Shown here one piece after another: positions 6,426-63,885 of a stretch of 64,000 bases of DNA. Position 1 is the first letter of the stretch. Each line of letters begins with the position of its first letter. Both the position numbers and the translations under genes were made by a program. The notes under the pieces are model-generated. The model made no database searches. It was not told where the DNA came from and saw only the letters and a list, made by a program, of their open reading frames with translations. The stretch covers positions 372,001-436,000 of the forward strand of contig JAQGEQ010000283.1 in the NCBI GenBank assembly GCA_034620365.1, given 5' to 3'. This stretch comes from Pegea sp. RAD2-039 (Eukaryota; Chordata; Thaliacea; Salpida; Salpidae).

Positions 6426-6614
6426 ATGAAATATTTAAAAGCATTTATGTTTAAAGATGACGTCATCCCTTCCTATCAAAACAAAAACAGCCTCGGGGCA
6501 TTGAGTCAGGTTTTATCACAATCGAATTTTAACTCAAAATTTAGTTTTATTCATTTTTCTATTAGAGGATTAAAGATGAAAAAACCGGTTTTATTAAAAA
6601 AAATTAATTGCTGA
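6426..6614 (+). CDS. Small hypothetical ORF in beta, copy 1 (62 aa)
   Basis: I do not recognise this product. The frame starts MKYLKAFMFKDDVIPSYQ, continues with a Ser/Asn/Gln-rich middle, and ends in a Lys-rich tail. A near-identical frame lies in the second beta copy (9710-9916), where six codons past the end of copy 1 remain open. The first 150 bases are almost the same in both copies and are richer in GC than their surroundings. They include the palindrome TGACGTCA at 6458-6465. A T-rich tract ending in CTTAG (about 6400) just upstream could be a splice acceptor, so this may be an exon instead of a whole gene. Two close copies are weak evidence of coding, because young duplicates keep open frames by chance. 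Confidence 0.3.
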   Translation: MKYLKAFMFKDDVIPSYQNKNSLGALSQVLSQSNFNSKFSFIHFSIRGLKMKKPVLLKKINC

Positions 6615-6652
6615 AACCAATTAACAATTTAGTGGATATCAGATAACGTTTT

Positions 6653-12155: not shown

Positions 12156-12170
12156 ATTATTAAGTAAACA

Positions 12171-13132
<962 letters not shown>

Positions 13133-18697: not shown

Positions 18698-18712
18698 TTT
18701 CAAGTTAATTGG

Positions 18713-33347: not shown

Positions 33348-34730
33348 TTACTTCTTCTGATTAAAATGAGTTCTTTTGTGGTATGAAAGACTGGAATTAC
33401 GAGCAAATTTCCTTCCACAAACAATACATTCATATGGCTTCTCACCAGTATGGGTTCTTTCATGACATAACAAATGGGTTTTTTGACTAAACTTTCTTTC
33501 ACAAACAATACATTCATATGGCTTCTCGCCAGTATGAGTTCTTTCATGATTTAAAAGACTGAAATTATGTGCAAATTTTCTTTCACAAACAATACATTCA
33601 TATGGCTTCTCACTAGTATGAGTTCTTTCATGACTTAAAAGATTAGATCTATGACTAAATCTTCTTCCACAAACAGCACATTCATATGGCTTCTCACCAG
33701 TATGAGTTCTTTCATGACTTAAAAGACTAGATCTTTGACTAAATTTTCTTTCACAAACAATGCATTCATATGGCTTCTCACCAGTATGGGTTCTTTCATG
33801 ACATAACAAATGGGTTTTTTGACTAAACTTTCTTTCACAAACAATACATTCATATGGCTTCTCGCCAGTATGAGTTCTTTCATGATTTAAAAGACTGAAA
33901 TTATGTGCAAATTTTCTTTCACAAACAATACATTCATATGGCTTCTCACCAGTATGAGTTCTTTCATGACTTAAAAGATTAGATCTTTGACTAAATTTTC
34001 TTTCACAAACAATGCATTCATATGGTTTCTCACCAGTATGAGTTCTTTCATGACATAACAAATGGGTTTTTCGACTAAACTTTCTTTCACAAACAATACA
34101 TTCATATGGCCTTTCACCAGTATGAGTTCTTTCATGACATAACAAATGGGTTTTTTGACTAAACTTTCTTTCACAAACAATACATTCATATGGCTTCTCG
34201 CCAGTATGAGTTCTTTCATGACTTAAAAGACTAGATCTTTGACTAAATTTTCTTTCACAAACAATGCATTCATATGGTTTCTCACCAGTATGAGTTCTTT
34301 CATGACATAACAAATGGGTTTTTCGACTAAACTTTCTTTCACAAACAATACATTCATATGGCTTCTTGCCAGTATGAGTTCTTTCATGATAAACAAGCTG
34401 AGATTTGAATTTAAATTTCTTGTTACAGTCTAAGCATTCATATTTGATTTTGAAATTAGATGATTGTTTGTTTTCTTCATTATTTTCTTTCCTTTTGAAT
34501 GCTGTTTTATGGCTGTTAGTCTCTTTATAATGGCAACTTGTAGTTGTTGGAATTTCTTTAGTGTTATTTAAACTAGTTTGATCTGCATGACTTTTATACA
34601 AGCTATATACTCCACCAGAAGTGTTTGCCAAAATTTTCTTTTCTGCAGTTTTCTTATTAAAACTTTTTTCATCATCATCTGATGACAGTTTTCTTTTTCG
34701 TGCAAAGTTGCTGCCGTGTATCAAGTTCAT
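33348..34730 (-). CDS. C2H2 zinc-finger protein ZNF-E, 13 fingers, intact
   Basis: The frame encodes 460 residues. The family N-terminus ([14 protein letters not shown], acidic patch, Ser/Asn/Lys linker) is followed by 13 C2H2 fingers. Fingers 5-8 (SRKTH, SQRSN, AHNFS, SQKTH) and 9-12 (SQRSS, SHRSN, AHNFS, SQKTH) form a repeated four-finger block with a 336-bp period. Linkers vary once each to HTGKKP, HTGERP and HTSEKP. The C-terminus [10 protein letters not shown] matches the end of ZNF-C and the relic end in the other clade. The ATG complement is 34728-34730; the frame stays open 15 codons upstream, across the splice acceptor (AG complement at 34746-34747), so the ATG is the better start. 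Open throughout; probable nuclear DNA-binding protein with unknown target. Confidence 0.9.
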
Positions 34731-34745
34731 TTTCAAGTTAATAGG

Positions 34746-36690
34746 CTGAAGAAAAAGAACTTTCTTAATTTTCAAATGTGCATAAAATAGTTTTACTTTT
34801 AAGTGATATATTATTTTTATATGAACAAAGTTACTTTACTAATGATAACAATCAAGTTTAGATCAAGTTTTGTAAAAGTCTTAACCACAAACTTCTGATA
34901 TTCTATATACATATTTTTGTTTAAACCGAATTTGAAGAAAAATTTTTTGTAAACTTTTCCGAGTATTTTCACAAATTGTTGGTTATAGTTCAATATTTAG
35001 ACAACAAAATTTCCAATTCTATATTAAAGAAATAGAAATAAATTCTTCTATAGAAAAGGCATTATTGTTTTACATGTAGCATTTTTGAGGGCAAAACACG
35101 TTTGCTTGTGAAAATGATAACATGAGTTCAGAAACTAAAAAATAAAAAGTATGTAATAAATGTAAGATTTAAGAGTGTTTAAAATAGATCAACAAGAAGT
35201 TAAACCTTTATTTTACAGATTTTAATCTGCAGTTATTTATCTCATATTCAAGTGTAAGTTCCTCAATAGAGTTAACTTGTATGAATTTATATTAATAGTG
35301 AGCAACGATTAATAAAAAAATATATCAAACTATTTCTAGTTATTTTTAATTACATATATACTTAGTTATGTTTATATATTATATTTTAGTTATAGTTAGA
35401 GAATATTCTAATCAAAAGTCAAGACTTAATATTGACTTATTGAATATACATTAGATTTAATTTAGAAACGATAAGCTCAACCTCAAAAAATACATATTTA
35501 AATATCATGGAAATCTATATAGAATTTATAACTTACAAGCCAATATAAACGAACAAAGATTTACTTAAAGTCTAATATTTTGACTGTTATAAACATTTAC
35601 TACAAATTTTTATTTTAAAAAAGTTCATGTTTAAACGCTATACCAGCAAATACTTCCCAAAAATCAATACTAACAATTGTCCTTTAAAATTAAGCAACCT
35701 ACATAAGTTTACAAAACATCGAAAATCATTCATGATCATCTAACAACAATCATTTTTCTCTGTTGGCATTAAGTTTGCAAGTAACAAAAAGAGACAAAAG
35801 AGAGCAACAAAACATTATAATTTAAAATAAGTTATGATAATATATATAACACAAATGACGTTACCAAACATAATAACTTTTGGTCAAGGTCTTCTTAGGA
35901 ATATATATATGTTTGATTTATAAAAGTGATTTATAAATCTTCAAAACAGTTTGGAGAAATTCTAATTTTGAAAGCAATGTTAGAAACACAAAAATCTTTG
36001 CACGCAAATTCTGATGATAATATTAAAGTTATAGAAGCTTTTGCTATTATGATTTTGTTGTTTGCTGATTAACATTTTGATGCCTTTACTGCTTTGTTCT
36101 CAATATTATAGTACAATACATCTTTTTATTATTATCAAGTAACTGCAAAATCCAAACTTTGTAAGAGTATTTGTTCAATCAGTTTTTATTATTTTTAGTA
36201 TTTTATATTTTTTAAAGTTACAAATAAACAATAAATTTCAAGAAATACTTATAGATATTAATCATTTAAGGTTTTTTTTTTTTAAAACCTCTAAAAGCTA
36301 TTCTAAAAGGTATTATTATTTTTTGATGAGTTTGTGGGTATGTTTGACTGAATACAGTAATTAATTGCTAGAATAACTTGATTTCACAAAAAACATTATT
36401 AAAGTGATATAACAACTATGTACCACCTTCAAAGCAATGATTAAGTGAAGTGTTAAGATAGAATTTCAAGAATAGCAGTAAGAAGTACATTTTAGTTCAC
36501 AAAGCTACAAACAATAAGTGGAAAAGTAGTGTTGTTATTGTTAGTAGTGAAAGTAGAATATTTTGGCATTTACGTAAATGTTTCATCCCCTATTACTCTA
36601 TATACCTAGTTCATTCTGTAGTCGACAGTGGTTTGTTAGTAGTGTTTTGTTAGTTTTCTTCGTTATTAGTTTCCTTTTACCAATTGAATA
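34746..36690 (-). repeat. 5' flank of ZNF-E
   Basis: About 1.95 kb matches the ZNF-C flank and the reverse complement of the ZNF-G flank (52330-54280). It lies between ZNF-E and a divergently oriented sister relic (37285-37618), so it may have been a shared bidirectional control region. No exon is identifiable. Confidence 0.65.
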
Positions 36691-41012: not shown

Positions 41013-41027
41013 CCTAGTAACTAGAAA

Positions 41028-42412
41028 ATGAATATGATAGAAGAGAGCAAATTTGACCGAAAGAGGAAACTGTCATCAGATGATGATGAGAAAAGTTTTA
41101 ATAATAAAACTGCGGAAGAGACAAATTTGGTAAACACTTCTGGTGGAGTACATAGCTTGCATAAAAGTCATGCTGATCAAACTAGTTTAAATAATACTAA
41201 AGAAATTCCAACAACTACAAGTTTCCCCTTTAAAGACACTAACAGTGATAGGAAAGCATTCAAAGGGAAAGAAAATAATGAAGAAAATAAACTATCATCT
41301 AATTTCAAAATCAAATATGAATGCTTAGACTGTAACAGGAAATATAAATGCAAATCTCAGCTTATTTATCATGAAAGAACTCATACTGGTGAGAAGCCAT
41401 ATGAATGTAAAGTTTGTGAAAGAAAATTTAGTCAAAAAACCCATTTGTTATGTCATGAAAGAACTCATAGTGGTGAGAAGCCATATGAATGCATTGTTTG
41501 TGAAAAGAAGTCTAGTCAAAACGCACATTTGTTAAGCCATGAAAGAACTCATACTGGTGAGAAGCCATATGAATGCATTGTTTGTGAAAGAAAATTTGCA
41601 CATAATTCCAGTCTTTTAAATCATGAAAGAACTCATACTGGTGAGAAACCATATGAATGTAAAGTTTGTGAAAGAAAATTTAGTCAAAAAACCCATTTGT
41701 TATGTCATGAAAGAACTCATAGTGGTGAGAAGCCATATGAATGCATTGTTTGTGAAAAGAAAATTTGCACGTAATTCCAGTCTTTTAATTCATGAAAGAA
41801 CTCATACTGGTGAAAAGCCATATGAATGTATAGTTTGTGAAAGAAAATTTGCACTTAATTCCAGTCTTTTAATTCATGAAAGAACTCATACTGGTGAGAA
41901 GCCATACGAATGTATTGTTTGTGAAAAAAAGTTTAGTCAGAAAGCCCATTTGTCAAGTCATGAAAAAACTCATACTGGTGAGAAGCCATATGAATGTAAA
42001 GTTTGTGAAAGAAAATTTAGTCAAAAAACCCATTTGTTATGTCATGAAAGAACTCATAGTGGTGAGAAGCCATATGAATGCATTGTTTGTGAAAAGAAAA
42101 TTTGCACGTAATTCCAGTCTTTTAATTCATGAAAGAACTCATACTGGTGAAAAGCCATATGAATGTATAGTTTGTGAAAGAAAATTTGCACTTAATTCCA
42201 GTCTTTTAATTCATGAAAGAACTCATACTGGTGAGAAGCCATACGAATGTATTGTTTGTGAAAAGAAATTTAGTCATAGGTCTAGTCTTATATGTCATGA
42301 AAGAACTCATACTGGTGAGAAGCCATATGAATGTATAGTTTGTAAAAGAAAATTTAGTCATAATTCCAATCTTGTAACTCATGAAAGGACTCATACCGGC
42401 GAGAAACCATAG
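41028..42412 (+). pseudogene. ZNF-F, C2H2 zinc-finger pseudogene, 13 fingers
   Basis: The ATG at 41028 lies 15 bases after the acceptor. The family N-terminus (MNMIEESKFDRKRK...) precedes 13 fingers. The first frame ends at 41774 after five full fingers because one extra A in finger 6 (near 41758-41765, GAAAAGAAAATTT) shifts the reading. The same lesion recurs 337 bp later in finger 10 (stop at 42111), because a four-finger block was duplicated after the insertion. The last fingers are readable in the third frame to the clade's terminal TAG at 42410-42412. As it stands the product would be 248 residues with five good fingers. The rare linker HSGEKP marks fingers 2, 5 and 9. AATAAA lies at 42542-42547. 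Confidence 0.88.
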
Positions 42413-43835
42413 GAATATGTTTTAATTGTGAAAAAAAATTTAGTTGAAATTCATGTCGATTACGCCATGAAATGATTCATGTTTCTCAGAAAAAGTGAGA
42501 TCATTTTGCTGGTCAAAGTTTACTTGCTATTTATAAGAAGAAATAAATAGCTTTGTGAAGATCAGATGGTTTAAAAATATAATTTTTAAAATTGTTTTTT
42601 CAGTTTGAGTTGTTTTTATTTAATTAATATTTGTTTTATTGATCAAATGTTGTATGTTACAGTAAATAATAATGATTTTAAAAGTTATTTTTCTGTTATT
42701 GTTTGTGATCGGCGATTCGTATTTTTTTTTGTAAACGAACTATAACTTGTTTCATTCTTATTCCAAGTTTTCTTAAACCCACAAGTTTTTTAATGTCCTT
42801 TATTTATTACCAAAAAGCTTCTGTATTTAGATTTTAATCTCTTAGTTAATCAATGTTGTGCAAACTGCTGATAAATTTTAGTTTTTGTTTAGAAATCCGT
42901 TTAAAACATTTTAAATTTATGCAACTTATTACTCTTCACAATTTGTTTTTATTTTTTTAATTGAAACTTCAGTTTTTAGTAGATACTCAAAATAATTTCA
43001 AGAAAATAAAGTTATAGATCATAAAATCTCTTTTTTCCAACCTAATGCTATTTTGTTTATTATTTCATTTTAGAAATAAATGCTTTTTAATAAAACATAT
43101 TACATAATAATTATCCCTTCTGCTATAGCACTAAGCAGTTTATTACCCGAATGGTTAAAACTAACTTGAAAGATTGAATTGATGAAAAATTGAAATAATT
43201 ATCTAATTTTTTTAAACTTTGTTAGCAAGCCAGTTATTACGTCAGAAGAAGAAATACTTGCTTAATGTTTGCCAGTAAGTTCAGTTTAAACTATTTTATA
43301 ATAGTATTATTTTAAGTTGTCAATTTAGGTTTAATAATATTTTATTTTTCTTAAATTACTTTCAGTATATCTAAACACAATTACTTTTTCAACTGAATTA
43401 CTTTCAGCAAACAAGATAAGACCAAAACATCTAGAAACTTTAGTTTGCCGATGTATCTAAATTATGCAATCTACAAATTCACCGAATTTCTTGAGCTAAT
43501 CTTTTAGTTTATCTTTAAAATATGTTCTTTAATAATCAGCACAAGTTTGTTGATAATTTAAAAAAATCATTATGTAGAATTTAATTTATAAAAAAAAATT
43601 TACAAAAATACTTCAGTTTATTAATTCAGTTTATGTAATAATCATTTTAAATTATGTTTATAAAAATAAACAGTTCAACTGCAAACAATAATCATATATT
43701 ATTACAAATGTAATAGCAACTTATTAAACCAAATTTTGACTCACAATAACTTTCTTTAGCTTTTAAGAGAAGTCAATTACTAGAAGTTTTCTAGACTAAA
43801 TTTTCACATTTATACAATTATACAATAAAGTTAAA
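42413..43835 (+). repeat. 3'-flank duplicon, copy behind ZNF-F
   Basis: This is the same duplicon as at 1259 and 13133, starting with the decayed extra finger. Its end (43725-43835) matches 14550-14640. No gene. Confidence 0.75.
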
Positions 43836-45410: not shown

Positions 45411-48400
45411 AGATGAAAAAAAAGAAACCTTTATTGATATAATTACTTATGTCTTACAAAACGGTCACTATAGATTAGAAGAAGGTTTTATTGCTAAACA
45501 ATAAAAAGAATTATTAGATTTAAAGAAAATATATTCATAATAGGAATAATTTCAATTTATTGATTTTAGACAGATAGCATATAATGATAAGAATTTTTAT
45601 AATTAACAATCTAAAAGCTGCTAATTTAATATTCGAGAGTTTAAATAAATTCTTCTCATTGTTGAAACAACTGTCTAATTTCTTAAAAATTGAAATTACT
45701 TTGTCTTATAAGGAATGTTTTTTAAAGTAATTACATTCAATTAATTGCATTCAAGTAATATTTAAAAAAAACTTGTATTGTATATTTTACTCATAAATTG
45801 CAGCTCGATTGATTGGAAAAATTCTTATCAATATGAAAATATTTCAAAAATAAATAAGAAAAATTTTACATTCCAAAATATTTTCTGCATGTTCTCATAA
45901 TGAATACATTAAAGTGATTTTAAACTGAATTCTTTTATTTCAACTTATAGCTTATAAAATAAAAATATTTTGTTTTCTTTATTTATACTTAAAGACAATT
46001 CTCTGTTAATAAAATTTGAAGCTTGAACTAGTTTCATAAAATCATCACAAAAAAATTGTGTTTGAAAACGTTATGTGTGACGTAATCAAAAAAACATTAT
46101 TTTCCAAATTATTCAAATAATGCGAAGTATAATTCACTACTAGTACATAATTATATAAATATTATCTAAGTATATAATATTATATAATAACTATAAAACT
46201 CAATTTAATCAACTGTTTTCCTAAAATAGTTAAATAAGTTTAGAATAACATTAGTAAGATCAGAGAAAAATATTATCTAACAAATTCTACCATGTCAATT
46301 AATTAAGAGTCAGAGAAAAACTGACCTTAACAATTTATTTGCAGTTTGTCTCACTTTTATTGGAATTTCTTTTATTAGACTGTAAATCAAAAAATATTGT
46401 CAAATAAAATTAGATTTTAATATTTATTTTTCAGCCACAACATGTCGCTGTAATAATTTTATTTTCATATTTTGTAAAATTGTAAATTTCTCCTTAGATC
46501 TGTTTGATAAATAGTCTAAGACTTTGAACTTGAAAGACTTTATTTTTTAATATTTGTAAAAATTTTATTCAAACTAATACAAATATCTTTATATAAAAAT
46601 ATGTTTAGTTTTAACGAATTACTTGAAAAATTTAAACTCAAAAGTATTTTGCACCTAGAAATAAGATACAGTCTTCTAAAAGATTGATGTCAGAGAAATA
46701 AAGTTTGTCTAACAGTTTTTAATAAATCAAACTTATTGAGAAAAAGAAAAGTTTGAAAAAGTACTTTCCTCCTGACAAATACTAGATCGAAAGAAATTAT
46801 TAAAACAAAGAACTATTTTTTAGTTCAACAAATTGCTCAGCTAGTTGTCCACCACACTAGCAATATTTTGAAATCGACAATCTGTCGATAAACTTTATAA
46901 AAAATTGAATTTCTGAAAATATATTATTTTAAACTCTTGTTGTTAATAAAACTTTTAAATTTGAATATAATAATCGTAATATTGGTAGACTACCATTAGT
47001 ATATTTGTAATAAATTTATTATTTCACTTAGTTGTTTTATAAAAGTTTTTTTCTTTCTAGTCTTTGATAAACTTTTTGTAGAAAATTAATTTAATTAAGT
47101 AAAAAAAGTAATTTAAAATTGTTGTCAAAGGAAAACATTTTGTAAGAGTTCTAAATAAATCAAAGTTATAAAAGAGAAAGTAATTATTAAAATTAACTTT
47201 TGTTTTGACAATTAATAGATGGAAAGAGATGATAGTCAAAGAACTATTATGGAACATTAGACGTATTAGGTCTTGAAAACGAGCAGGATTTTGAAATAGA
47301 CAACTTGTAGACATGTATAAATTTATTAACCAGCCAATAAATTTCATATTCTTTTAATTTCGATTAATACTCTTGAAGAAAGTATCATTTTAGTTTGTTA
47401 ATATTTAATATTGGTTATTAATGATAATTTTATTTGAATTATCTTATCTCTTTATTTAGCTGTTATATCAAAATGTTAATCTTTCTTTTCAGTATTTTTA
47501 CTTTATCAAACAAATCGTCGCCACAGACTGCAAAGGTTCTGGTTCACTGATCTATATTTATAAAAATATTTGAGAATTTAGTCAATATATTCGATGTTAT
47601 GATTTTGCTAAAATTATTTTAAATGTTTTATTAAGCTTATTAATTTTAATGCTAGGTTTGATAAAAACTTACAAATACTTACAATGTATAAAAAGATAAG
47701 GATAATTTTGATTTATATTTTTTAGTCTTTAATATTAATCAGTATTTGACGCTAGACGTCGCTGAAGATAAATAATTTTAAAAACTTTGCATTGCTTCAG
47801 GCTATGTTATTGTATAGTTTTTCCAACTCAGTAATTCACTAAATTAAAAAAGAAAGTATTTAGATGAGTTCTGTATCTAAGATGTTTGCAGAAGTAAGAG
47901 TTCTATATTAGATATTACATCATCAGTATCTTTGATAATTGCACTGCTTAGTTATTTTAATTCTGATAAACAATTTAAGTTGATCAAAATTAGCTAATAG
48001 AGTGTTTCACTGAATTAAAAAAACCTAAAAAAACCTATAAATTAATATCAGATAAGTTTTTTAACTAAGTGTAAGGTTTAAAGAAATAAAAAAGGTGACT
48101 CTATAATAGTTTTATTTCATATTTTGTAAAATTATAATTTTTGTATTCTTAGATCTGTTAGATAAATAGTCTAGCTCACAGACTTTGAACTTACAACAAA
48201 AGTATTATGCAACTATAAGTAAGTTATAATCTTCTATAAGACTAATGTCAAAGAAATAAAGTTTGTCTCGAAATTTTTAATAAATGAAACTTTTAGAGAA
48301 AAATAAAAGTTTACAAAAATACTTTCCTCCAGACAAATACTAGATTGAATGAAATTCGTAAAGCAGAGAAATAGTTATCAAGTTATTGCACAGCTATGAA

Positions 48401-49217: not shown

Positions 49218-50689
49218 GAAAAAAGGTTTTACTGAATACAGTAATTAATCGCTAGAAAAACTTGATTTCAGAAAAAAAAGGATTAAAGTGATATAACAAC
49301 TATGTACCATCTACAAAGCAATGATTAACTAAAGTGTTAAGATAGAATTTCAAAAGAGCAGTAAGAAGTACATTTTAGTTCACAAAGCTACAAACAATAA
49401 GTTGAAAAGTAGTGTTGTTATTGTTAGTAGTGAAAGTAGAATATTTTACCATTTGCGTAAATGTTTCATCCCCTATTACTCTATATACATAGTTCATTCT
49501 GTAGTCAACACTGGTTTGTTAGTAGTGTTTTGTTAGTTTTCTTTGTTATTAGTTTACAATTACAAATTGAATAAAGCTAAAGATGAACGTTTTCAGATAT
49601 GGAGTTTTAATATCAGATTTTCAAAACTATTTAAAATAAAAGTTTTGGCTAAATACTCCTGTCTGTCAAATTAATAGATTTTAAATTAAATTTTGTTAGT
49701 TTATGTTGCCTTATCTGTTATAAAATACTTATACATTACAAGGGAATTAAATTATTGATTTTTGTTAATTGAACTTTTCATGTTTAACTATATTATTGTA
49801 TTTAATAACATGAAGAAGTGACTGGTTTAAGATCTAAAGTTTTAAAAATTAAATAAATATTTGATTTACTTTTAAAAAAATATTTAGTTTCCATTCTCAA
49901 ATTAATAACTTTGATCAAAAATTATAATAAATATAATTACAAGATAAATAATTGCATAATCGTTAATAGGTAATAAATAGTGAGAATATAACAGCCATAG
50001 TAACTGAAATACTAGATCTCAATAAACAGATTTATAAATCACTTTTGCTTCATCAATATCTACTTACAAACACTTTTAGTCAATTCTCTAAAAACAGATT
50101 ACAGTTTCTGATACAATTTATGTCAGTGGATTGATTCAGTCAGATAAAGACTTTAATTAACTCTTTCTAAGCTTTGAGCAAGGCTAACAGACAAAAGTTG
50201 TTTTAACTTTCTTCAACTCGATGGTGCAAATGGGGCCACTGTGACCTTCTTACTGGCTGCAGTAACCGCTTTGCACAGTACCTTCACGCTATTTGGGGCT
50301 CATTTAGGTTATTTTAAGTTTTGAGTTAGTGGTTTACAAAAAAGCTTGTATAAAAATAAATTAATTAATTTTGATGACAAAAGTTTTATTCATTGTTTTC
50401 TTTACATCATTTCATATCAATTTAGATCTTGCATTCTAAGGTTTTTAATTTCTAAACAAATTGTTTAATTGATATTTTAAAATAGAACATCACTTTTTTG
50501 TCTTGATCACTTTTTTGGTAATTTGATTTTGAGGCAAATTTAGGATTTTGGTTTAGATTAAAGCTGTCAAAGCTCAAGAAAAAAGTAATCTTCAAAAACT
50601 TTTGGAGAAATTATAATTTTGAAAGCAACGTTGGAAACAAAAAAACTCACTTGCACGTAGATTATGATGACAGGATCAAAGTTTTACAA
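49218..50689 (+). repeat. Mosaic of 5'-flank, eta and gamma modules
   Basis: Positions 49240-49575 match 36340-36690 and 49575-49800 are eta. Positions 49800-50530 match 37660-38400 with the sister relic missing between. The last 100 bases (50590-50690) are a reversed piece of the ZNF 5' flank. No gene. Confidence 0.6.
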
Positions 50690-51250
50690 GTTTCGGAAGC
50701 TCCACTTAATCGAACTCTTCCTGCTGCAGTCCCCAAGCAACTCTGCAAGTCACCTAGAGCACCGCTTCCCACCTCAAGAGTTCTACGGTCTAAACCAGCC
50801 ACGGTCGAGCTACACCAACATCGGCTCCATCTGCAGCTCCCAAGTGACCGCGCGCACAAGTAACCTAGAACACCGCGACCCAGCTCTAGAGCCATTCGTT
50901 CAAAACCAACAACGATCGACACGACTACTTCACTATAACCTCGGCTCCCTCTGCAGCTCCCAAGTGACTGCGCGCGCAAGTCACCTAGAACACCGCGTCC
51001 CAGCTCTGGAGCTCCCTTCTCTATGGAGTACACGACTCAAGATCCTATTGATGTTATTAGGACCCCTCATCGCTTACCCATCACGACGGTCTAGCTACGC
51101 TTTCACCTGGGTGAACGAGCTCACGCTCACCCCTATCGTTTCAAGACAAGATTTACACCGATACATGCTGTCAACTATGGTTGTACCCACCTGGTACAAC
51201 CCCTCCACACCTAGGATACCGATAATGACACCATATTGCCATAGAAGTTT
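50690..51250. other. GC-rich island with internal repeats
   Basis: About 560 bp with more than half G+C in a window of about one quarter. Three related units of 110-120 bp lie at about 50710, 50821 and 50941; the last two share TCGGCTCC-TCTGCAGCTCCCAAGTGAC at exact 120-bp spacing. Frames are open on both strands (50664-51266 plus; 50662-51033 minus), as expected for GC-rich DNA. The plus frame shows the protein repeat CSSQVTAR-S-LEHR-PALE. I recognise no family. The flanks are ordinary AT-rich modules, so this looks like an inserted foreign or mobile segment. Confidence 0.7.
51179..51201 (+). other. Hairpin near the end of the GC-rich island
   Basis: Perfect 9-bp arms GGTTGTACC (51179-51187) and GGTACAACC (51193-51201) enclose a five-base loop. 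A weaker GGGTGA/TCACCC pair lies at 51109-51114 and 51127-51132. Confidence 0.6.
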
Positions 51251-51470
51251 TCGATGGTTTGGTTAGGTGTTTTGGTTTGTTTTAGTTTGCTTTGATAATT
51301 AGAGTTCCATTTAAATTAGCAACTTAATGGTTGGTTCGATAATTAGAATTACCAAGAGCTGAAATGGATCTACAGTTATATATCTAGCGTAGAAGTAGTA
51401 AACCCAATAGTTTAAAACACTCTAGCAACTTGCTTACAAGAATATTAATCGTAAAGTTTAAAAATGATTA
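51251..51470. repeat. Fragment of the ZNF-C/E duplication
   Basis: The sequence TCGATGGTTTGGTTAGGTGT and its downstream neighbours match 32275-32480 and 16440-16660. It is cut on the left by the GC-rich island. Confidence 0.6.
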
Positions 51471-51700: not shown

Positions 51701-54276
51701 AGGAGTTTTAAACTAAATATTAAGATGTATGCATGAAAGTAAAAGGTTCAAACAGTTGCAAACAAATTAGACCATACTTCTATAGATTTTAAGAAAAAAA
51801 TTTTAAACAGTTTTATCCAATATCTAAGTATTAATTTTTCAATAAAATTTAAATTTATGATGTAACATACATTGAGAGCAACAATTAATTCAAAAAATGT
51901 TTTAAAAGTTTTTTTTAAGTCTTAATGATAAATATAATAGAGTCAATATTTTCAATATACTCAATAAATTCAAATTTAAGTGTTGATTTTGATTTACTTA
52001 TAATGCAGAAAATAAATGGAAATGAAAATTGAAACTTTAAAACAAATTAAAATACTAAAAAAGTTAAACATGAAACTAATAAGGCACAATCATATATCAG
52101 ATATGTAGGCAATATAAATTAAAAAAAAATAATTTAATACCCTTGTAATGTATAAGAATTGTATAACAGTTAAGGCAATTTAAGCGAACAAATTTTAATT
52201 CAATTCTAATTATTTGACAGACAGAAGTATTTAGCTAAAACTTTTCTTTTGAATAGTTTTGAAAATCTGATTTTAAAACTCCATATCTGAAAACTTCCAT
52301 ATTTAACTTTATTCAATTGGTAAAAGGAAACTAATAACAAAGATAACTAACAAAACACTACTAACAAACCAGTGCCGACTACAGAATGATCTACATATAT
52401 AGAGTAATAGGGGATGAAACATTTACGTAAATATTCTAATATCACTACTAACAATAACAACACTACTTTTCAACCTTATTGTTTGTAGCTTTGTGAATTA
52501 AAATGTACCTATTACTGTTCTTCTTGAAATTCTACCTTAACACTTTACATAATCATTTCTTTGTAGATGGTACATAGTTGTTATATCACTTTAATATCCA
52601 TTTTTGTGAAAAAAAAGTTTTTCTAGTACTTAATTACTGTATTCAGCCAAACATACCCACAGACTCATCCAAAAATAATAATACCTTTTAGATTAGTTTT
52701 CAGAGGTTTTATAAAAAAAAACTTTAAATGATTAATATCTATAAGTATTTCTTGAAATTTATTGTTCATTTGTAACTTTAAAAAATAAAAAATAATAAAA
52801 ACTGAATGAACAAATACTCTTACAAAGTTTGGATTTTGCAGTTACTTTTTAATAATATAGAAATGTAATGTACCAAAAAGTCGCTTTATAATATTAAACA
52901 GCAAAAGTATCCAAATGTTAATCAGCAACCAACAAAATCAAAATAGCAAAAGCTTATATAACTTTGATATTCTAATCAAAATTTGCTTGCAAAGATTGTT
53001 TTGTTTCTAACATTACTTTCAGAATTAGAATTTCTCCAAACTGTTTTGAAGATTAATAATACTTTTTTATAAATCAAACATATATATATTCTTAAGAAGA
53101 CTTTGACCAACAGTTTAAATGTTTGGTAACGTCATTTGTGTTATATATATTATTATAATTATATTAAATTATAAGGTTTTGTTGCTCTTTTTTGCTTCTT
53201 TTAGTTACTTGTAAACTTAATGCCAATAAAGAAAAATGATTGTTGGTAGATGATCCTGAAAGATTTTCGATTTTGTGTAAACTTATGTAGCTTATCTAAT
53301 TTTATAAGACATTTGCTAGTATTGATTTTTGTGAAGTTATTGCAGGTATAGAGTTTAGACATCAACTTTTCAAACCTTTTTAAAATAAAAATGATTAGTA
53401 AATTTCAAATGAAAATTTGAAGTGAATGGTTAACACTGTCAGAGTATTAGACTTTAAGTCAATTTTTGTTAGATTATCTTGGTTTGTAAGTTATAAATTC
53501 TTTATACATTTCCATGATATTTAAATATCTATTTTTTAAAGTTGAGCTTATCATTTTTAAATTAATTCAATAAGTCAATATCAACTCTTGAATTTTCATT
53601 AAAATATTCTCTATATATAACTGATATATAATATATATATATAAATATTACTAGGTATATTTGTAATTAAAAATAACTAGAAATAGTTTGATATATTTTT
53701 TGATTAATCGTTGCTCACTATTAATGTACATCGTACAAGTTAATTCTATTGAGGAATTTACACTTGAAAATGAGATAAATAACTGCAGATTAAAATCTGT
53801 AAAATTAAGGTTTAAATTCTTGTTGGTCTGTTTTAAATACTGTTAAATCTTATATCTTTAAAATGCTTTTTAATTTTTATTTTCTGAACTCATGTTATCA
53901 TTTTCACAAGCAAACGTGTTTTGCCCTCGTAACTGCTATATGTAAAACAATAATACCTTTTCTATAGAAGAATTTTTTTATATTTATTTATTATAGAATT
54001 GGATATTTTGTTTTCTAAATATTGAACTATAACCAACAATTTGTGAAAATACTTGCAAAAGTTTACAAAAAATTGTTGTTCAAATTCGTTTTAAATAAAA
54101 TTATGTATATAGAACATCAAAAGTTTCTGGTTAAGACTTGTAAAAAACTTGATCTAAACTTGATTGTTATCATTAGTACACAAACTTTGTATATCATATA
54201 AAAATAATATATCACTTAATACTAAAAATATTTTATATGTAAATTTTAAAATTAAAAAAGTTTTTTTTTTCTTCAG
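51701..54276 (+). repeat. Reversed eta module and 5' flank of ZNF-G
   Basis: Positions 51720-52330 are eta reversed. Positions 52330-54280 are the family 5' flank in plus orientation, ending in a T10 tract and CTTCAG, 15 bases before the ATG. An AT microsatellite lies at about 53620-53645. No exon can be recognised. Confidence 0.65.
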
Positions 54277-54291
54277 CCTATTAACTTGAAA

Positions 54292-55674
54292 ATGAACTTG
54301 ATACAAGGCAGCAACTTTGCACGAAAAAGAAAACTGTCATCAGACGATGATGAGAAAAGTTTTAATAATAAAACTGCAGCAAAGAAAATTTTGTTAAACA
54401 CTTCTGGTGGAGTATATAGCTTGTATAAGAGTCATGCTGATCAAACTAGTTTAAATAATACTATAGATATTCCAACAACTACAAGTTTCCCTTATAAAGA
54501 GTCTAACAGAGATAAGAAAGCATTCAAAGGGAAAGAAAATAATGAAGAAAACAAACAATCATCTAATTTCAAAATAAAATATGAATGCTTAGATTGTAAC
54601 AAGAAATTTAATTGCAAATCTCACCTTGTTTGTCATAAAAGAACTCATACTGGTGAGAAGCCATATGAATGTGTTGTTTGTGAAAAGAAGTTTAGTCAAA
54701 ATTCCAATCTTTTAACTCATGAAAAAACTCATACTGGTGAGAAGCCATATGAATGCATTGTTTGTGAAAGAAAATTTAGTCAAAATTCCAATATTTTAAC
54801 TCATGAAAAAACTCATACTGGTGAGAAGCCATATGAATGCATTGTTTGTGAAAGAAAATTTAGTCAAAAAACCCATTTGTTATGCCATGAAAGAACTCAT
54901 ACTGGTGAGAAACCACATGAATGTGTTGTTTGTGAAAGAAAATTTAGTCAAAAACATCATTTGTTAGGTCATGAAAGAACTCATACTGGTGAGAAACCAT
55001 AGGAATGTGTTGTTTGTGAAAAGAAGTTTAGTCAAAATTCCAATCTTTTAACTCATGAAAAAACTCATACTGGTGAGAAGCCATATGAATGCATTGTTTG
55101 TGAAAGAAAATTTAGTCAAAAAACCCATTTGTTATGCCATGAAAGAACTCATACTGGTGAGAAACCACATGAATGTGTTGTTTGTGAAAGAAAATTTAGT
55201 CAAAAACATCATTTGTTAAGTCATGAAAGAACTCATACTGGTGAGAAGCCATATGAATGCATTGTTTGTGAAAGAAAATTTAGTCAAAAAACCCATTTGT
55301 TATGCCATGAAAGAACTCATACTGGTGAGAAACCATATGAATGTCTTGTTTGTGAAAGAAAGTTTAGTCGAAAATCTAGTCTTTTAAGTCATGAAAGAAC
55401 TCATACTGGTGAGAAGCCATATGAATGTGTTGTTTGTGAAAAGAAGTTTAGTCATAGGTCTAGTCTTCTATGTCATGAAAGGACCCATACTGGTGAGAAA
55501 CCATTTAAATGCATTGTTTGTGAAAGAAAATTTAGTCATAGGTCTAGTCTTCTATGTCATGAAAGAACCCATACTGGTGAGAAGCCATATGAATGTGCTG
55601 TTTGTGGAAGAAGATTTGCCCGAAATTCCAATCTTGTAATTCATGAAAGGACTCATACTGGCGAGAAACCATAG
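54292..55674 (+). pseudogene. ZNF-G, C2H2 zinc-finger gene with one internal stop, 13 fingers
   Basis: The ATG at 54292 follows the acceptor. The family N-terminus ([14 protein letters not shown]...) and 13 fingers lie in one continuous frame, interrupted only by TAG at 55000-55002. There the Tyr codon at the start of finger 6 has changed from TAT to TAG. A terminated product would be 236 residues with five fingers; otherwise the frame runs to the usual terminal TAG. Fingers 2-5 and 6-8 are related blocks, with fingers 2 and 6 exactly 336 bp apart. [17 protein letters not shown] occurs twice (fingers 5 and 8). One lesion only, so it is either a very young pseudogene, a truncated but active gene, or a sequencing or allelic difference. 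AATAAA lies at 55804-55809. Confidence 0.85.
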
Positions 55675-56720
55675 GAATATGTTTTTTTTTTAAAAAAAAA
55701 ATTAGTTGAAATTCAAGTTGATTACGCTATGAAATGATGCATGTTTCTTAGAAAAAGTGAGATCATTTTGCCGATAAATGTTTACTCACAATTTATAAGA
55801 ATGAATAAACAGCTTTGTGAAGATCAGAGGGTTTAAAAATATAATTTTTAAAATTGTTTTTTCAGTTTGAGTTGTTTTTATCTTATTTATATTTGTTTTA
55901 ATGATCAAATGGTGTATGTTACAGTAAATAATAATGATTTGAAAAGTTGTTTTTCTTTTATTGTTTGTGATCGGCGGTGTGCATTTGTTTTTGTAAACGA
56001 ACTATATCTTCGTTCTTATTCCAACTTTTTTTAAACTCACAAGTTTTTTCTTGTATTTTATATATTATCAAAAAGCTACTGTATTTAGATTTTAATTTCT
56101 TAGTTAATCAATGCTGTGTAAACTGCTGATAGTTATAAGATTTTTGTTAAGAAATCCGTTAAAATCTTTTTAAATTTCTGCAACTTATTACTCTTTGCAA
56201 TTAGTTTTTATTTTTTTAATTGAAACTTCAGTTTTTAGTAGATACTTAAAATAATTTCAAGAAAATAAAGTTTTAAAATTTTTTAAATTCATAAAATCTT
56301 TTTTTTCAAACCTAATGCTATTTTATTTATCATTTCATTTTAGAAATAAATACTTTTTAATAAATCATTACATCATAATTAATCCCTTCTGATATAGCAC
56401 TAAGCTGTTTATTACCCGAATGGTTAAAACTAACTTAAAAGATTGAGTTGATGAAAAATTGAAATAATTATCTAAATTTCTTAAACTTTGTTAGCAAGCC
56501 AGTTATTACGTCAGTAGAAGAAATACTTGCTTAATGTTTGCCAGTAAGTTCAGTTTAAACTATTTTGTAATAGTATTATTTTAAGTTGTCAATTTAGATT
56601 TAATAATATTCTTTTTCTCTTAAATTACTTTCAGTATATCTAAACACAATTACTTTTTCAACTGAATTACTTTCAGCAAAAAAGATAAGATTAAAACATC
56701 CAACTTTAGTTTGCCGATGT
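55675..56720 (+). repeat. 3'-flank duplicon, copy behind ZNF-G
   Basis: This is the same duplicon as at 1259, cut short near 56720 where a piece of the distal 5' flank (GTGTTTGTTAGTAGTGTTTT) begins. The decayed extra finger at its start is the most eroded copy. Confidence 0.75.
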
Positions 56721-57870: not shown

Positions 57871-60800
57871 GAAAAAAAAAGAAACCTTTATTGATATAAT
57901 TACTTATGTCTTACAAAACGGTCACTATAGATTAGAAGAATGTTTTATTGGTAAAGAATAAAAAAAATTATTAGATTTAAAGAAAATGTATTGATATTAT
58001 TTTCAACAGCATTCATGGAAGCAGAAAAATGAAATTTAATCATTTTATTGAAACGAAAAATTTTGTGGCTTACGTTGATATTTCCTAAGTTTATTAATCA
58101 TACAAACGAATTTAAAAAACTTGTAACATTAATAGAAAAGTTATTTGAAACAGAAACAAGTTTTCCAAATGGTTTTGGATAGAATAATTTCAATATATTG
58201 ATTTTTGACAGATAGCATATCAATGATAAGAATTTTTAAAATTAACAATCTAAAAGCTGCTAAATTAATATTCCAAAGTTTAAATAAATTCTTCTCATTG
58301 TTGAAAAATTTGCCTAATTTCTTAAAAATTGAAATTACTTTGTCTAATAAAGAATGTATCTTTAAAGTAATTACATTCATTTAATTGTTTTCAAGAAATA
58401 TTGAAAAAAACTTGTATTGTATATTTTACTCATAAATTGCAGCTCGATTGATTGAAAAAAATCTTATCAGTTAATGAAAATATTTCAAAAATAAATAAGA
58501 AAAATTTTACATTCCAAAATATTTTCTGCATGTTCTCATAATGAATACATTAAAGTGATTTTAAACTGAATTCTTTTATTTCAACTTATAGCTTATAAAA
58601 TAAAAATATTTTGATTTCTTTATTTATACTTAAATACAATTCTCCATTACTAAAATTTGAAGCTTGAACTAGTTTCATAAAATCATCACAAAAAAATTGT
58701 GTTTGAAAACGTTATGTGTGACGTAATCAAAAAAACATTATTTTCCAAAATATTCAAATAATGCAAAGTATAATTAACTACTAGTATATAATTATATAAA
58801 TAATAAGTAAGTATATAATATTATAAAATAATTATAAAACTAAATTTAATCAACTCTTTTCCTAAAATAGTTAAATAAGTTTAGAATAACATTAGTAAGA
58901 TTAAAGAAAAATATTACCTAACAAATTCTACCATGTCAATTAATTAAGAGTCAGAGAAAAACTGACCTTAACAATTTATTTGCAGTTTGTCTCACTTTTA
59001 TTGGAATTTCTTTTATTAGACTGTAAATCAAAAAATATTGTCAAATAAAATTAGATTTTAATATTTATTTTTCAGCCACAACATGTCGCTGTAATAATTT
59101 TATTTTCATATTTTGTAAAATTGTAAATTTCTCCTTAGATCTGTTTGATAAATAGTCTAAGACTTTGAACTTGAAAGACTTTATTTTTTAATATTTGTAA
59201 AAATTTTATTCAAACTAATACAAATATCTTTATATAAAAAATATGTTTAGTTTTAACGAATTACTTGAAAAATTTAAACTCAAAAGTATTTTGCACCTAG
59301 AAATAAGATACAGTCTTCTATAAGATTGATGTCAGAGAAATAAAGTTTGTCTAACAGTTTTTAATAAATCAAACTTATAGAGAAAAAGAAAAGTTTGAAA
59401 AAGTACTTTCCTCCTGACAAATACTAGATCGAAAGAAATTAATAAAACAAAGAACTATTTTTTAGTTCAACAATTTGCTCAGCTAATTTACCTCCACACT
59501 AGCATTATTTTGAAATCGACAATCTGTCGATAAACTTTATAAAAAATTGAATTTCTGAAAATATATTATTTTCAACTCTTGTTGTTAATAAAACCTTTAA
59601 ATTTGAATATAATAATCGTAATATTGGTAGACTAATATTAGTATATTTGTAATAAATTTATTATTTCACTTAGTTGTTTTATAAAAGTTTTTTTCTTTCT
59701 AGTCTTCGATAAACTTTTTGTAGAAAATTAATTTAATTAAGTAAAAAAAGTAATTTAAAATTGTTCTCAAAGAAAAACATTTTGTAAGAGTTCTAAATAA
59801 ATCAAAGTTATAAAAGAGAAAGTAATTATTAAAATTAACTTTTGTTTTGACAATTATTAGATCGAAAGAGATGATAGTCAAAGAATTATTATGGAACAGT
59901 AGACGTATTAGGTCTTGAAAACGAGCAGGATTTTGAAATAGGCAGCTTGTAGACATGTATAAATTTATTAACCAGCCAATAAATTTCATATTCTTTTAAT
60001 TTCAATTAATACCCTTGAAGAAAGTATCATTTTAGTTTGTTAATATTTAATATTGGTTATTAATGATAATTTTATTTGAATTATCTTATCTCTTTATTTA
60101 GCTGTTATATCAAAATATTAATCTTACTTTTCAGTATTTTTACTTTATCAAACAAATCGTCGCCACAGACTGCAAAGATTCTGGTTCACTGATTTCTATT
60201 TATAAAATTATTTGAGAATTTAGTCAATATATTCGATGTTATGATTTTGCTAAAATTATTTTAAATGTTTTATTAAGCTTATTAATTTTAATGCTAGGTT
60301 TGATAAAAACTTACAAATACCTACAATGTATAAAAAGAGAAGGATAATTTTGATTTATATTTTTTAGTCTTTAATATTAATCAGTATTTGATTTTATTTT
60401 CCTACAAATCTTATCATATTTTAAATTTTTTAAATTGTTGGTATATCTTATCATAAGTAAATGTTCTTTTTGTTTCTATCCTTATTTTTCTTCTAAATAT
60501 TATTCTTATTAGTATTCTTCTTGTATTTATTCTTTCTTCTTGTATGTTCTATCATTATTATAAATGTTATAAGAACTTAGTCTAATTTTTAAAAACTAAT
60601 TCAAATCTAAAGTTGTTTATTTTGTGTAACTAAAACCACTTTTCTATAAAATTAGAACAATTTATTTAACGATTTTTTAGTTTTAATTGTTTTAGTCGTA
60701 AAAGTTGACGCTAGACGTCGCTGATGATAAATAACTTTGAAAAGTTTGCATTGCTTCAGGCTATGTTATTGTATAGTTTTCCAACTCAGTAATTCACTAA

Positions 60801-61547
60801 GTTAAAAAAGAAAGTATTGAGTTGAGTTCTGTATCTAAGATGTTTGCAGAAGTAAAAGTTCTCTATTAGATATTCATCATTATTTTTGATATTTGCACTG
60901 CTTAGTTATTTTAATTCTGATACACAATTTAAGTTGATCAAAATTAGCTAATAGAGTGTTTCACTGAATTAAAAAAACCTAAAAAAACCTAGAAATTAGT
61001 ATCAGATTAGTTTTTTAACTAAGTGTAAGGTTTAAAAAAATGTAAAAAAGCTGACCCTATAATAGTTTTATTTCATATTTTGTAAAATTATAATTTTTGT
61101 ATTCTTAGATCTGTTAGATAAATAATCTAGCTCACAGACTTTGAACTTACAACAAAAGTATTATGCAGCTATCAGTAAGTTATAATCTTCTATAAGACTA
61201 ATGTCAAGGAAATAAAGTTTTTCTCAAAATTTTTAATAAATAAAACTTTTAGAGAAAAATAAAAGTTTACAAAAATACTTTCCTCCAGACAAATACTAGA
61301 TTGAATGAAATTCGTAAAGCAGAGAAATAGTTATCAAGTTATTGCACAGCTATGAAAGCTTTTTTCCTTCAACATTTTGGAATCGACAATCTGTCGATAA
61401 GCATTAAAAGGATTTGACATTCTGCAAAATATTATTTTCAACTTATGCCATTAATACCAACATTTGAAAATACATTCAATCACACAACGTATTTAATATA
61501 TAAGATTTATCAATTTTTCTTGTTCTTAAACGGTGGTTTAATTTCCA
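57871..61547 (-). repeat. Delta block, reversed copy 2 (most complete)
   Basis: This is the reverse complement of 23551-27001, without the deletions seen in copy 1 at 45540 and 47750. ATCGACAATCTGTCGAT palindromes lie near 59516 and 61382. The two direct sub-repeats lie about 1.9 kb apart (cut by about 0.3 kb in copy 1). Confidence 0.75.
59699..59989 (-). CDS. Hypothetical 96-aa ORF of the delta block, copy 3
   Basis: Intact third copy of the MKFIGWLINLYMSTSCLF frame, differing from copy 1 at under ten residues. Nothing else supports expression. Unrecognised. Confidence 0.3.
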   Translation of the reverse strand: MKFIGWLINLYMSTSCLFQNPARFQDLIRLLFHNNSLTIISFDLIIVKTKVNFNNYFLFYNFDLFRTLTKCFSLRTILNYFFYLIKLIFYKKFIED

Positions 61548-61595
61548 AAATAAACTGAAGAGAAGAGAAAATAGCTTCAAAAAAAGTCAGAAACT

Positions 61596-61862
61596 TTAAC
61601 AGCTTTTTATTTTTGAAACTAAATTCAAGGAGTAGAAATATTTAGAAATTCTTCTCAGAAGAAAACATTTTGTAACAGTTCTAAATAAACTAACATTATA
61701 AAGGAGAAAGTAATTAATAAAATTGACTTTTGTTTTGACAAATATTAGATCGAAAGAGATGATAGTAAAAGAAGTATTATGAAACATTATTACTTCTTTG
61801 AAACGCGGTAGATTTTGAAATAAACAATTTATAGAATATATAAATTTATTATTGGGTATCAT
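61596..61862 (-). CDS. Diverged 88-aa relative of the delta ORF
   Basis: The core SFTIISFDLIFVKTKVNF, followed by NYFLLYN, SLFRTVTKCF and LLRR, aligns with residues 36-80 of the 96-residue ORF at about 60% identity. It has a shorter, different N-terminus (MIPNNKFIYSINCLFQN). It sits at the expected place in the second sub-repeat of delta. Retention of one open frame despite clear divergence is the best hint that the frame may be or have been coding. It is absent from the 48.5-kb copy because of the 1.7-kb difference there. Confidence 0.3.
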   Translation of the reverse strand: MIPNNKFIYSINCLFQNLPRFKEVIMFHNTSFTIISFDLIFVKTKVNFINYFLLYNVSLFRTVTKCFLLRRISKYFYSLNLVSKIKSC

Positions 61863-62225
61863 TTTACTTCGTTAATTTTTAATATTAGTTAATAATGATA
61901 ATTTTATTTGAATTATCTTATTTTCCTTTGTACTTTCTTTGTTATTTAAACTGTTTTCTATCAAATAATTTTTGAAATCTAGTAATGATGAGTAATTAAT
62001 AATGACATCAACAAAACCTAATAGGACGTTATAAAGCTAAAATAAAATGAGGAAGAAGATAAAGCAAAGATGTAGGAATAATCACAATGATGATGCTGAT
62101 CACAAATAATACTTTAGAGCTAATGATCAGTTTTTTAATTGTAGAAAGAATAAGGAACAATCGATTGGAGACATAATCTGCTCTTCATCAATCCTTAACT
62201 TGCACAAATAAATGATGAGAGCATT
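61863..62225. other. End of delta sub-repeat and transition
   Basis: Up to about 61930 the sequence still matches 60010-60110. Beyond that it is unique, purine-rich DNA without a gene. Confidence 0.5.
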
Positions 62226-62229
62226 TTGA

Positions 62230-63112
62230 TGTGATGACATCACACTCTTACTTGTTGGATGTTGCTATGAGAAAAGCAAATAGAAAAATAATAATCCAAA
62301 CTATGAGAATACACTTTGACGTGTAATGATGACGTCACTAGATGATGATGACGACTTCATTTTAATATTTTGTCAAAATATTTGAGTATGAAGTTGTTTG
62401 TGATTTGATGACGTCACAAAACCACTTGTGACGTCATCATCATTATCGGATTCAATAACAAACTCACAAACTGATCATGACGTTATCAGCATCATGCACT
62501 CTAACAAGTCTGAAATCAATGATGATGTCGCCAGTTCAAGAGTTGATGACGTCACTACAATCGGTTTTACCATGACTACACATGATTGTTGTTTTCTGAG
62601 AAAGTCATATATGGTGATGAAGTCCTTTGATCTCGTAGTATGGTTACCTGTAGTGACGTCATCAAGTAAAAGTTTAGGGAAGCTACAGAAGGCGAAAGAT
62701 CTTATAATTATATTGTGGTATGGTTGCTTGTAGTGACGTCATTAAGAAGAAGCATAGACAAGCTACAGAAGGCGAAAGAATTAAACAGAACGTAAAATTA
62801 TGTTGTGAACAAGTTTGACGTCATCAACTTGGATAGAAAAGAAGTAAAGTTAAATTTTGAACCAACAATTGATACATTGATAAACGGATAGGATTGAGTG
62901 ACGTCATCATCATCATCGATGTGATGAAAAATTGACTACGACATTATGATATTAATAATGACGTCATCAGTTTATTTTCATAAAAAAATTGAAATGGTGA
63001 TAGCACCACGGGCGTCATTAATAATTTATAAATTTGTGCATTTACTTTAAAAACTAATCGAATTAGTCTACGTCATCATCATAATCTAATCTGATGAGGT
63101 CATCAGTTTGAA
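62230..63112. repeat. Cluster of TGACGTCA palindromes
   Basis: Nine perfect TGACGTCA octamers lie at 62330, 62409, 62429, 62547, 62654, 62734, 62816, 62899 and 62959. Near matches lie at 62233 (TGACATCA), 62478 (TGACGTTA), 63012 and 63069. Most are extended by ATCATCAT or a mirror of it. Two neighbouring units (about 62633-62711 and 62714-62790) are an 80-bp imperfect tandem repeat sharing AGCTACAGAAGGCGAAAGA. TGACGTCA is the classic CRE bound by CREB/ATF bZIP proteins. A frame at 62428-62733 crosses the repeats and is not convincing as a gene. Confidence 0.75.
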
Positions 63113-63257
63113 AACTTTGATGTAACTGAAATTGATATATTATTTATATTATTTGATAACATCAAATTAGAAAATCTGTCTAAAGAACTTAACTGAACAA
63201 ACTTCTTAAAAAACTTTAAGTTATTTTAAAAAATTATATAAAAAGTAAAATAAAATA
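63113..63257. other. AT-rich junction
   Basis: Short unique stretch between the palindrome cluster and the theta module. Nothing is seen. Confidence 0.4.
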
Positions 63258-63885
63258 ATTGGGAAAAAATGAAATTGAGTTAAGTATAATTATATTCTTC
63301 GTAAGAAAAATTTTTTCTCTTAAAATTGAACCAACAAACACTAAATTGAAGCAAGTTTATAAAAACCATACAAGTTATTAAACAATGTTTCTGAAATGTA
63401 TTTTTTCTGAAATTTGGAAATTGTTTTTATATTTTGAAGTTGAGTTATTTTCAACGATTCTTAACTGTTCAATCTTTTAAAGGTTTTTTTAAATTTGTTT
63501 CATGAGTTTCATCCATCAAAACAGATTTAATGAAAAATTTTATAAGAAGTTATTAATAAAAAAAAATCGTTGTTTAAAACGATGAAGGCAAATTAATTAT
63601 TTAATAAAAATATTTGAAATTACTCATACTGATTTCAATCGAAAAATTGTTCAATGAAAAAATTGATTTTATTCAAATCCAAAGAATAATCGTTAAATTA
63701 AAATAATTTTGTACAAACTACGAAGTCAACATCTACTATATTGAACTGATAATGATTGTATATTATGTGAGCACAACAAAGTTTAACAATTTATTTAAAG
63801 TAATATTGCAAAAACTATCAAAATTCTGATCACCTATTAAAAAAGGTTATTTTGTTGAGAAAGTCTTAAAGGTTGTATCAGTTGA
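63258..63885. repeat. Theta module, copy 2
   Basis: Nearly identical to 48590-49217, ending at TATCAGTTGATG, after which the two copies diverge. No gene. Confidence 0.7.

What the first reader, a model, noticed from the sequence alone, without database searches (positions are those of the whole stretch)
62230..63112. Nine perfect TGACGTCA sites in about 640 bp
In DNA of this composition the octamer is expected far less than once in this length. It recurs nine times with spacings of about 20 to 120 bp and several near matches, often extended by ATCATC. TGACGTCA is the full cAMP-response element for CREB/ATF proteins. Either this is a minisatellite whose unit contains the palindrome, or a dense enhancer or decoy array. 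The palindromic sites are kept while the intervening bases have changed greatly, which favours selection.
Basis: partly seen in the sequence, partly recalled or inferred. Interest (0 to 1): 0.7.

Follow-up and report, generated by a model that had tools for sequence, protein, structure and literature searches.

The report
Genome-wide repeated CREB-site palindrome cluster
The nine identical 8-letter DNA sites are real, and they are one dense patch of a short palindrome, the classic CREB protein docking site, that is repeated far more often than expected throughout this animal's genome, including inside genes, for a reason not yet known.

Summary
Confirmed: nine perfect TGACGTCA in 637 bp (62330-62966); 0.26 expected in the whole window. 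The setting changes the reading. (1) The cluster is one copy of an old dispersed, AT-rich repeat: 81 matching pieces on 15 contigs. (2) The octamer is iterated genome-wide: 27,792 copies in 105.7 Mb against 969 for its reversed control, in predicted exons, short introns, repeats and unrelated tandem arrays. In 50 kb of gene-rich loci it is exact: 179 copies against 0-11 for each one-base neighbour. (3) In the window's repeat family octamers survive better than other words: 69 of 92 against 53%, p=2e-4. In a C148 satellite they do not. (4) The genome encodes a CREB and a Jun bZIP. Best reading: an iterated CREB/ATF-type bZIP site kept by selection or biased spread; binding is inferred, not shown. 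It resembles cyanobacterial HIP palindromes, but HIP density is not met. Seven paper searches listed no such report. Species unidentified.

The parts
62330..62337 (.). perfect TGACGTCA, site 1 (TGATGACGTCACT)
62409..62416 (.). perfect TGACGTCA, site 2 (20 bp from site 3)
62429..62436 (.). perfect TGACGTCA, site 3 (TGACGTCATCATCATT)
62547..62554 (.). perfect TGACGTCA, site 4
62654..62661 (.). perfect TGACGTCA, site 5 (in first copy of the 70-bp duplication)
62734..62741 (.). perfect TGACGTCA, site 6 (in second copy of the 70-bp duplication)
62816..62823 (.). perfect TGACGTCA, site 7
62899..62906 (.). perfect TGACGTCA, site 8 (TGACGTCATCATCATCATCG)
   Evidence: the 16-mer TGACGTCATCATCATC counts 118 forward and 107 reverse genome-wide
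62959..62966 (.). perfect TGACGTCA, site 9
62232..62242 (.). near match TGATGACATCA
62478..62485 (.). near match TGACGTTA
63068..63078 (.). near match CTACGTCATCA
63092..63102 (.). near match TGATGAGGTCA
62630..62779 (+). two-copy tandem duplication, 70-bp copies 62630-62699 and 62710-62779, 83% identical
61048..63094 (.). stretch shared, with gaps and insertions, with diverged copies (about 74-90% identity) on other contigs. In 12 of the 13 diverged 3-kb copies L013-L025 the match ends at 63092-63094; C191 (L037) matches on to 63295, C267 (L038) stops at 63069, and the near-identical C255 copies match beyond, so the ends are not fixed

Best explanation
The cluster is a dense local patch of a genome-wide iterated palindrome, core TGACGTCA, with a flank consensus TGATGACGTCATCA. 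It is carried here by an old dispersed AT-rich repeat. Shown: the genome-wide excess, the exactness of the core in gene-rich loci, its presence in predicted exons and short introns, in repeats and in unrelated tandem arrays, and its better survival than other words in this repeat family. Inferred: the word is read as double-stranded DNA by a CREB/ATF-type bZIP dimer (a CREB and a Jun are encoded), and neighbouring sites, with a mild preference for a 20-bp step (about two helical turns), may be bound together. That binding gives a small benefit, or a repair/conversion bias, that creates and keeps perfect copies. Repeats and satellites then multiply some of them, and those copies may simply decay.
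For: 27,792 TGACGTCA against 969 for the reversed word. Pairs spaced 10-40 bp: 5,606 against 0. Pairs spaced exactly 20 bp: 466, where the mean over the 31 spacings would be 181; outside tandem arrays the listed spacers look unrelated. In 50 kb of gene-rich loci 179 perfect copies against 0-11 for each of 24 one-mismatch words; in 197 sites of 13 loci the flanks prefer TGA before and TCA after. It is the most enriched 8-mer in those five loci, 146-fold. Motif-masked home-made gene models on 15 loci: 138 sites in 42.7 kb exon, 88 in 18.4 kb intron, 22 in 40.0 kb other; 64 of 184 introns hold one. Conservation in the window's family: 69 of 92 octamers intact against 53% of other consensus 8-mers (p=2e-4) and 56% of 8-mers with four G/C (p=1e-3), 8 representative copies. 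Twelve bZIP_1 matches over cut-off, of which two were read: the CREB piece matches CREB1 in the PDB, E=2.6e-19, the Jun piece JunD, E=9.3e-20.
Against: No binding, chromatin or expression data. In the 25-bp satellite on C148 the core is no better kept than the rest (0.889 against 0.892; 24 of 71 intact). After correction for base composition by class the gene-body preference shrinks: 118x exon, 211x intron, 91x other. Having a CREB and 12 bZIP matches is ordinary for an animal (recall). About 28,000 sites, many in exons, is unlike the promoter use of CREB sites that I know (recall). Part of the 20-bp excess comes from 20-bp tandem arrays (e.g. C8:368056 onwards). The loci used for exactness and gene models were fetched because they hold an extended form of the word; only one 10-kb stretch (L047, 2 sites) was chosen blind, and two 10-kb stretches next to cluster copies (L031, L035) have none. 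The gene models are home-made and not checked against transcripts.
Confidence: 0.45

Rival explanations
1. Self-propagating word without a regulatory job: a DNA-level bias (mismatch repair, gene conversion or methylation-linked repair) creates and restores perfect TGACGTCA, as proposed for HIP1 in cyanobacteria.
For: Exactness and preferred flanks of the word, spread over predicted exons, introns, other DNA and repeats, and uneven regional density (39 of the 58 pairs listed from the first 2.9 Mb of C1 lie at 2.01-2.22 Mb). Elhai's paper proposes such a repair model for HIP sites (abstract and section 3.1 read).
Against: No enzyme identified; none was searched for. The C148 array is not restored to perfection.
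Confidence: 0.25
2. RNA-level element: copies in a pre-mRNA pair with each other (the word is self-complementary) and help the splicing of the roughly 56-nt introns.
For: 64 of 184 predicted introns hold the word, 20 hold two or more, often within 30 nt of the donor; in 13 loci GT[AG]AG is followed by the word within 40 bp 54 times against 26 expected.
Against: Predicted exons and non-genic repeats hold it too; at most 5,606 close pairs exist for 27,792 sites. Of the two kinds of neighbour that would still pair through G-U, TAACGTCA/TGACGTTA is rare (5) and TGATGTCA/TGACATCA (15) is also the CpG decay product, so this point is weak.
Confidence: 0.12
3. Ordinary decayed minisatellite or transposon leftovers: the cluster is passive repeat DNA and the word was simply in the ancestral unit.
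For: The cluster is in a dispersed repeat, with one 70-bp tandem duplication and several spacings near 80 bp; C148 satellite cores decay like the rest.
Against: It cannot explain the same octamer in unrelated arrays (25-, 63-, 24-, 21- and 20-bp units), in predicted exons and introns, or the better survival in this family.
Confidence: 0.15

Closest known systems
cAMP response element (CRE, TGACGTCA) bound by CREB/ATF bZIP dimers
   Same: Identical octamer; the flank consensus resembles the bZIP motif GGATGACGTCATCC named for ATF4 in PMC9930257 (passages); CREB and Jun encoded.
   Different: Known CREs are mostly few per promoter (recall). Here there are 27,792 copies, many in predicted exons and introns. 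Binding untested.
HIP1 and other highly iterated palindromes of cyanobacteria (PMC4390886, abstract and section 3.1 read)
   Same: 8-bp palindrome, exact, strongly over-represented, with preferred flanks.
   Different: Those are bacterial and generally 1000-2000 per Mb; here 263 per Mb overall (27,792 in 105.7 Mb) and very uneven; no methyltransferase link tested.
Transposon-associated loop-anchor motifs in placozoans (PMC12221973, passages read)
   Same: A short motif spread with repeats through an animal genome of roughly 100 Mb.
   Different: There the motif sits in Mutator terminal repeats at promoters. Here the octamer is also found in predicted exons, introns and unrelated arrays, and looping is untested.

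Membership tests
CRE / CREB-binding site | exact octamer TGACGTCA | tested here: met
   nine sites
CRE / CREB-binding site | a cognate bZIP encoded in the genome | tested here: met
   CREB and Jun pieces
CRE / CREB-binding site | bound by CREB/ATF and drives transcription | not testable with these tools
   needs ChIP-seq/DAP-seq and reporters
Highly iterated palindrome (HIP) | palindrome in large genome-wide excess | tested here: met
   27,792 against 969
Highly iterated palindrome (HIP) | density of 1000-2000 per Mb | tested here: not met
   about 263 per Mb overall; some loci chosen for the word exceed 1000 per Mb (e.g. L043, 58 in 10 kb)
Highly iterated palindrome (HIP) | associated DNA methyltransferase | not tested
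   no search made
Minisatellite | head-to-tail array of one unit | tested here: not met
   no TRF array at 62.2-63.1 kb; one two-copy 70-bp duplication
DNA transposon end / subterminal repeats | terminal inverted repeats, target duplication or transposase | tested here: inconclusive
   dispersed copies with unclear ends; longest inverted arms found in 61900-63300 are 28 nt, 71%; target duplication and transposase not searched

The most novel reading that the evidence does not exclude
An animal genome carries its own highly iterated palindrome: the core TGACGTCA, with flank consensus TGATGACGTCATCA, is written tens of thousands of times, most densely in gene bodies, and read by a CREB/ATF-type bZIP as an architectural or gene-body element. 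It has spread into coding sequence, around splice donors, and into repeats such as the one in this window.
Probability: 0.3. Interest if true: 0.85.

Novelty: new variant of a known kind. Interest (0 to 1): 0.66.

Why it matters
Exact short words iterated through a whole genome are known from bacteria (HIP1, uptake sequences), where their origin is debated. A 29-fold excess of the CREB site in an animal, inside predicted exons and introns, would open that question in a system where the likely reader protein is already known, and would bear on how regulatory words arise and persist outside enhancers.

Tried and rejected
Not supported: a chromadorean nematode (exact SL1 22-mer absent; the TTAGGN search returned TTAGGG runs). 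No Rfam match at gathering score and no tRNA in the window. No fixed link to the neighbouring zinc-finger genes: zinc-finger matches occur in the 10-kb stretches of cluster copies L034/L035 and L038, but not in L032, L033, L036 or L037. No single conserved pair element: listed 20-bp pairs outside tandem arrays have unrelated spacers. COX1 was not found in the assembly, so no mitochondrial identification. Passages of PMC7854359 (compact annelid genome) were read for a possible species match; it gave none. The first exon/intron run was replaced by a motif-masked run, because the word contains a stop codon in one frame and could be pushed into introns; both used 15 loci and left out the array loci L004, L029, L030 and L041. 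The first conservation test, conditioned on the window copy, was replaced by a consensus-conditioned test on 8 representatives; it gave a smaller but still significant excess. One search was meant for 20 blind stretches and ran on L047 alone. The spacing list had one row too many (59) and was redone with 58 pairs; the 10-of-58 excess at 20 bp seen there is local, and genome-wide it is 466 against a mean of 181. The listings of paper searches showed no report of this excess; only open-licence papers are held.

Full report
The window lies in a 105.7-Mb eukaryotic assembly of 387 contigs (C60:372001-436000). A search for TTAGGN repeats returned TTAGGG runs, several at contig starts, and an 18S fragment scores as eukaryotic SSU. 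From recall it looks like a fast-evolving bilaterian animal; no tool named the species.

Observation. Nine perfect TGACGTCA lie between 62330 and 62966. The 64-kb window holds 11, against 0.26 expected in shuffles; in the 883 bp of the finding 0.0035-0.042 would be expected. The stretch is not a tandem array by TRF, though it contains one 70-bp duplication at 83%. Eight of the nine sites match TGATGACGTCA on one strand; none has the full 14-mer.

It is one copy of a dispersed repeat. A search of the own genome with 62200-63120 gave 81 matching pieces on 15 contigs (40 of 55 candidates scored, so a lower bound). Two C255 copies are 98-99% identical over the whole query; the others are partial, 77-98%. 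Alignment to 3-10 kb around copies shows a shared stretch of roughly 61048-63094, with insertions and internal repeats. The match ends at 63092-63094 in 12 of the 13 diverged copies L013-L025, but not in L037 or L038. No transposase was looked for, and no zinc-finger gene is consistently nearby.

It is one patch of a genome-wide excess. TGACGTCA occurs 27,792 times, against 969 for ACTGCAGT, its letters read backwards (that control has no CpG). The 16-mer TGACGTCATCATCATC counts 118 forward and 107 reverse, controls 0. Two octamers 10-40 bp apart occur 5,606 times, control 0; exactly 20 bp apart 466 times, against a mean of 181 per spacing, partly from 20-bp tandem arrays. Unrelated arrays share only the octamer: 25-bp units on C148, 63-bp units on C1 that read as protein in one frame (frame read by eye), and 18-39-bp units on C23.

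Exactness and flanks. In five gene-rich loci (50 kb: L040, L043-L046) there are 179 copies; each of the 24 one-mismatch words listed has 0 to 11. The flanks prefer TGA before and TCA after in 197 sites of 13 loci. It is the most over-represented 8-mer in the five loci, 146-fold over a dinucleotide model. TCACGTGA was also in excess (17 against 0.64).

Place in genes. A home-made exon/intron model with the word masked, on 15 loci (101 kb; array loci left out), puts 138 sites in 42.7 kb of exon, 88 in 18.4 kb of intron and 22 in 40.0 kb of other DNA; 64 of 184 introns (median 56.5 nt) hold one and 20 hold two or more. With composition taken into account the enrichments are 118x, 211x and 91x, so all classes are enriched and the gene-body preference is modest. 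Most of these loci were fetched because they hold the word; one blind 10-kb stretch (L047) has 2 sites, and the 10-kb stretches L031 and L035, next to cluster copies, have none. Examples of introns with the word after the donor are in L043, which looks like a VPS13 gene (by eye, from recall).

Conservation. Among 8 representatives of the window's repeat family, consensus octamers are intact in 69 of 92 cells, against 53% for 679 other consensus 8-mers (p=2e-4), 47% for the 72 with CG and 56% for the 74 with four G/C (p=1e-3). An earlier test conditioned on the window copy gave 85 of 115 against 31% and is biased by that choice. Against this, in the C148 satellite the core is no better kept than the rest (0.889 against 0.892; 24 of 71 intact). 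In the C1 coding array each core is intact in 34 of 35 units (core columns 0.996, rest 0.955), where protein constraint or recent amplification would do the same.

Reader protein. Pfam bZIP_1 gives 12 matches over cut-off, an ordinary number by recall. Two were read: one has the CREB basic region and zipper (E=2.6e-19 to a CREB1 chain), one is Jun (E=9.3e-20 to JunD). The PDB hit 1dh3 is, from recall, CREB bound to a CRE. The flank consensus resembles the bZIP motif GGATGACGTCATCC named for ATF4 in PMC9930257 (passages). Binding is therefore plausible and untested.

Interpretation. The cluster itself is ordinary in being a repeat copy; what is unusual is the genome-wide iteration of an exact CRE palindrome. 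I favour selection or biased spread of a bZIP-bound DNA word (0.45), over a repair-driven HIP-like word without a regulatory role (0.25), passive repeat remains (0.15) and an RNA pairing element (0.12). The listings of seven paper searches showed no report of such an excess in an animal; the library is limited to open-licence papers. TGACGTCA is already known as a top conserved upstream 8-mer shared by worms, flies and mammals (PMC551538, passages), which concerns promoters and not a genome-wide iteration.

Noticed in passing
window 176-1287, 12168-13157, 17399-18733(-), 33348-34835(-), 41025-42444, 54256-55687: Six related C2H2 zinc-finger gene copies with 84-bp finger repeats; those at 12168, 41025 and 54256 are split over two or more ORFs.
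   Followed up: partly
window 3027-3950 (-): Two ORF fragments resembling a non-LTR retrotransposon by eye; one has an Exo_endo_phos_2 match below the curated cut-off, the other no match.
   Followed up: no
window 24930-25226, 47057-47353(-), 59699-59995(-), 61596-61871(-): A similar 91-98 aa ORF recurs four times; no Pfam match for the one tested; probably repeat DNA.
   Followed up: no
L030 (C23:386001-396000) 3063-4484 and 5774-7795: Long arrays of a 14-bp unit (102 copies) and an 11-bp unit AAGAAGATTAG (184 copies, 98% matches) beside TGACGTCA arrays.
   Followed up: no
L041 (C1:5270001-5280000) 6651-9031: 63-bp array, 35 copies found at up to 18 mismatches, two TGACGTCA per unit, open in one frame as a Thr/Ser-rich protein repeat read by eye.
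   Followed up: partly
gene-rich loci L040, L043-L046: A second palindrome, TCACGTGA, is also in excess (17 against 0.64 expected).
   Followed up: no
window 50522-51266: Local G+C peak (0.339 in 50-52 kb) with overlapping ORFs on both strands and no Pfam match for the one tested.
   Followed up: no
G000:C1 about 2.01-2.22 Mb: 39 of the 58 close pairs listed from the first 2.9 Mb of C1 lie here (listing): density is regional.
   Followed up: no
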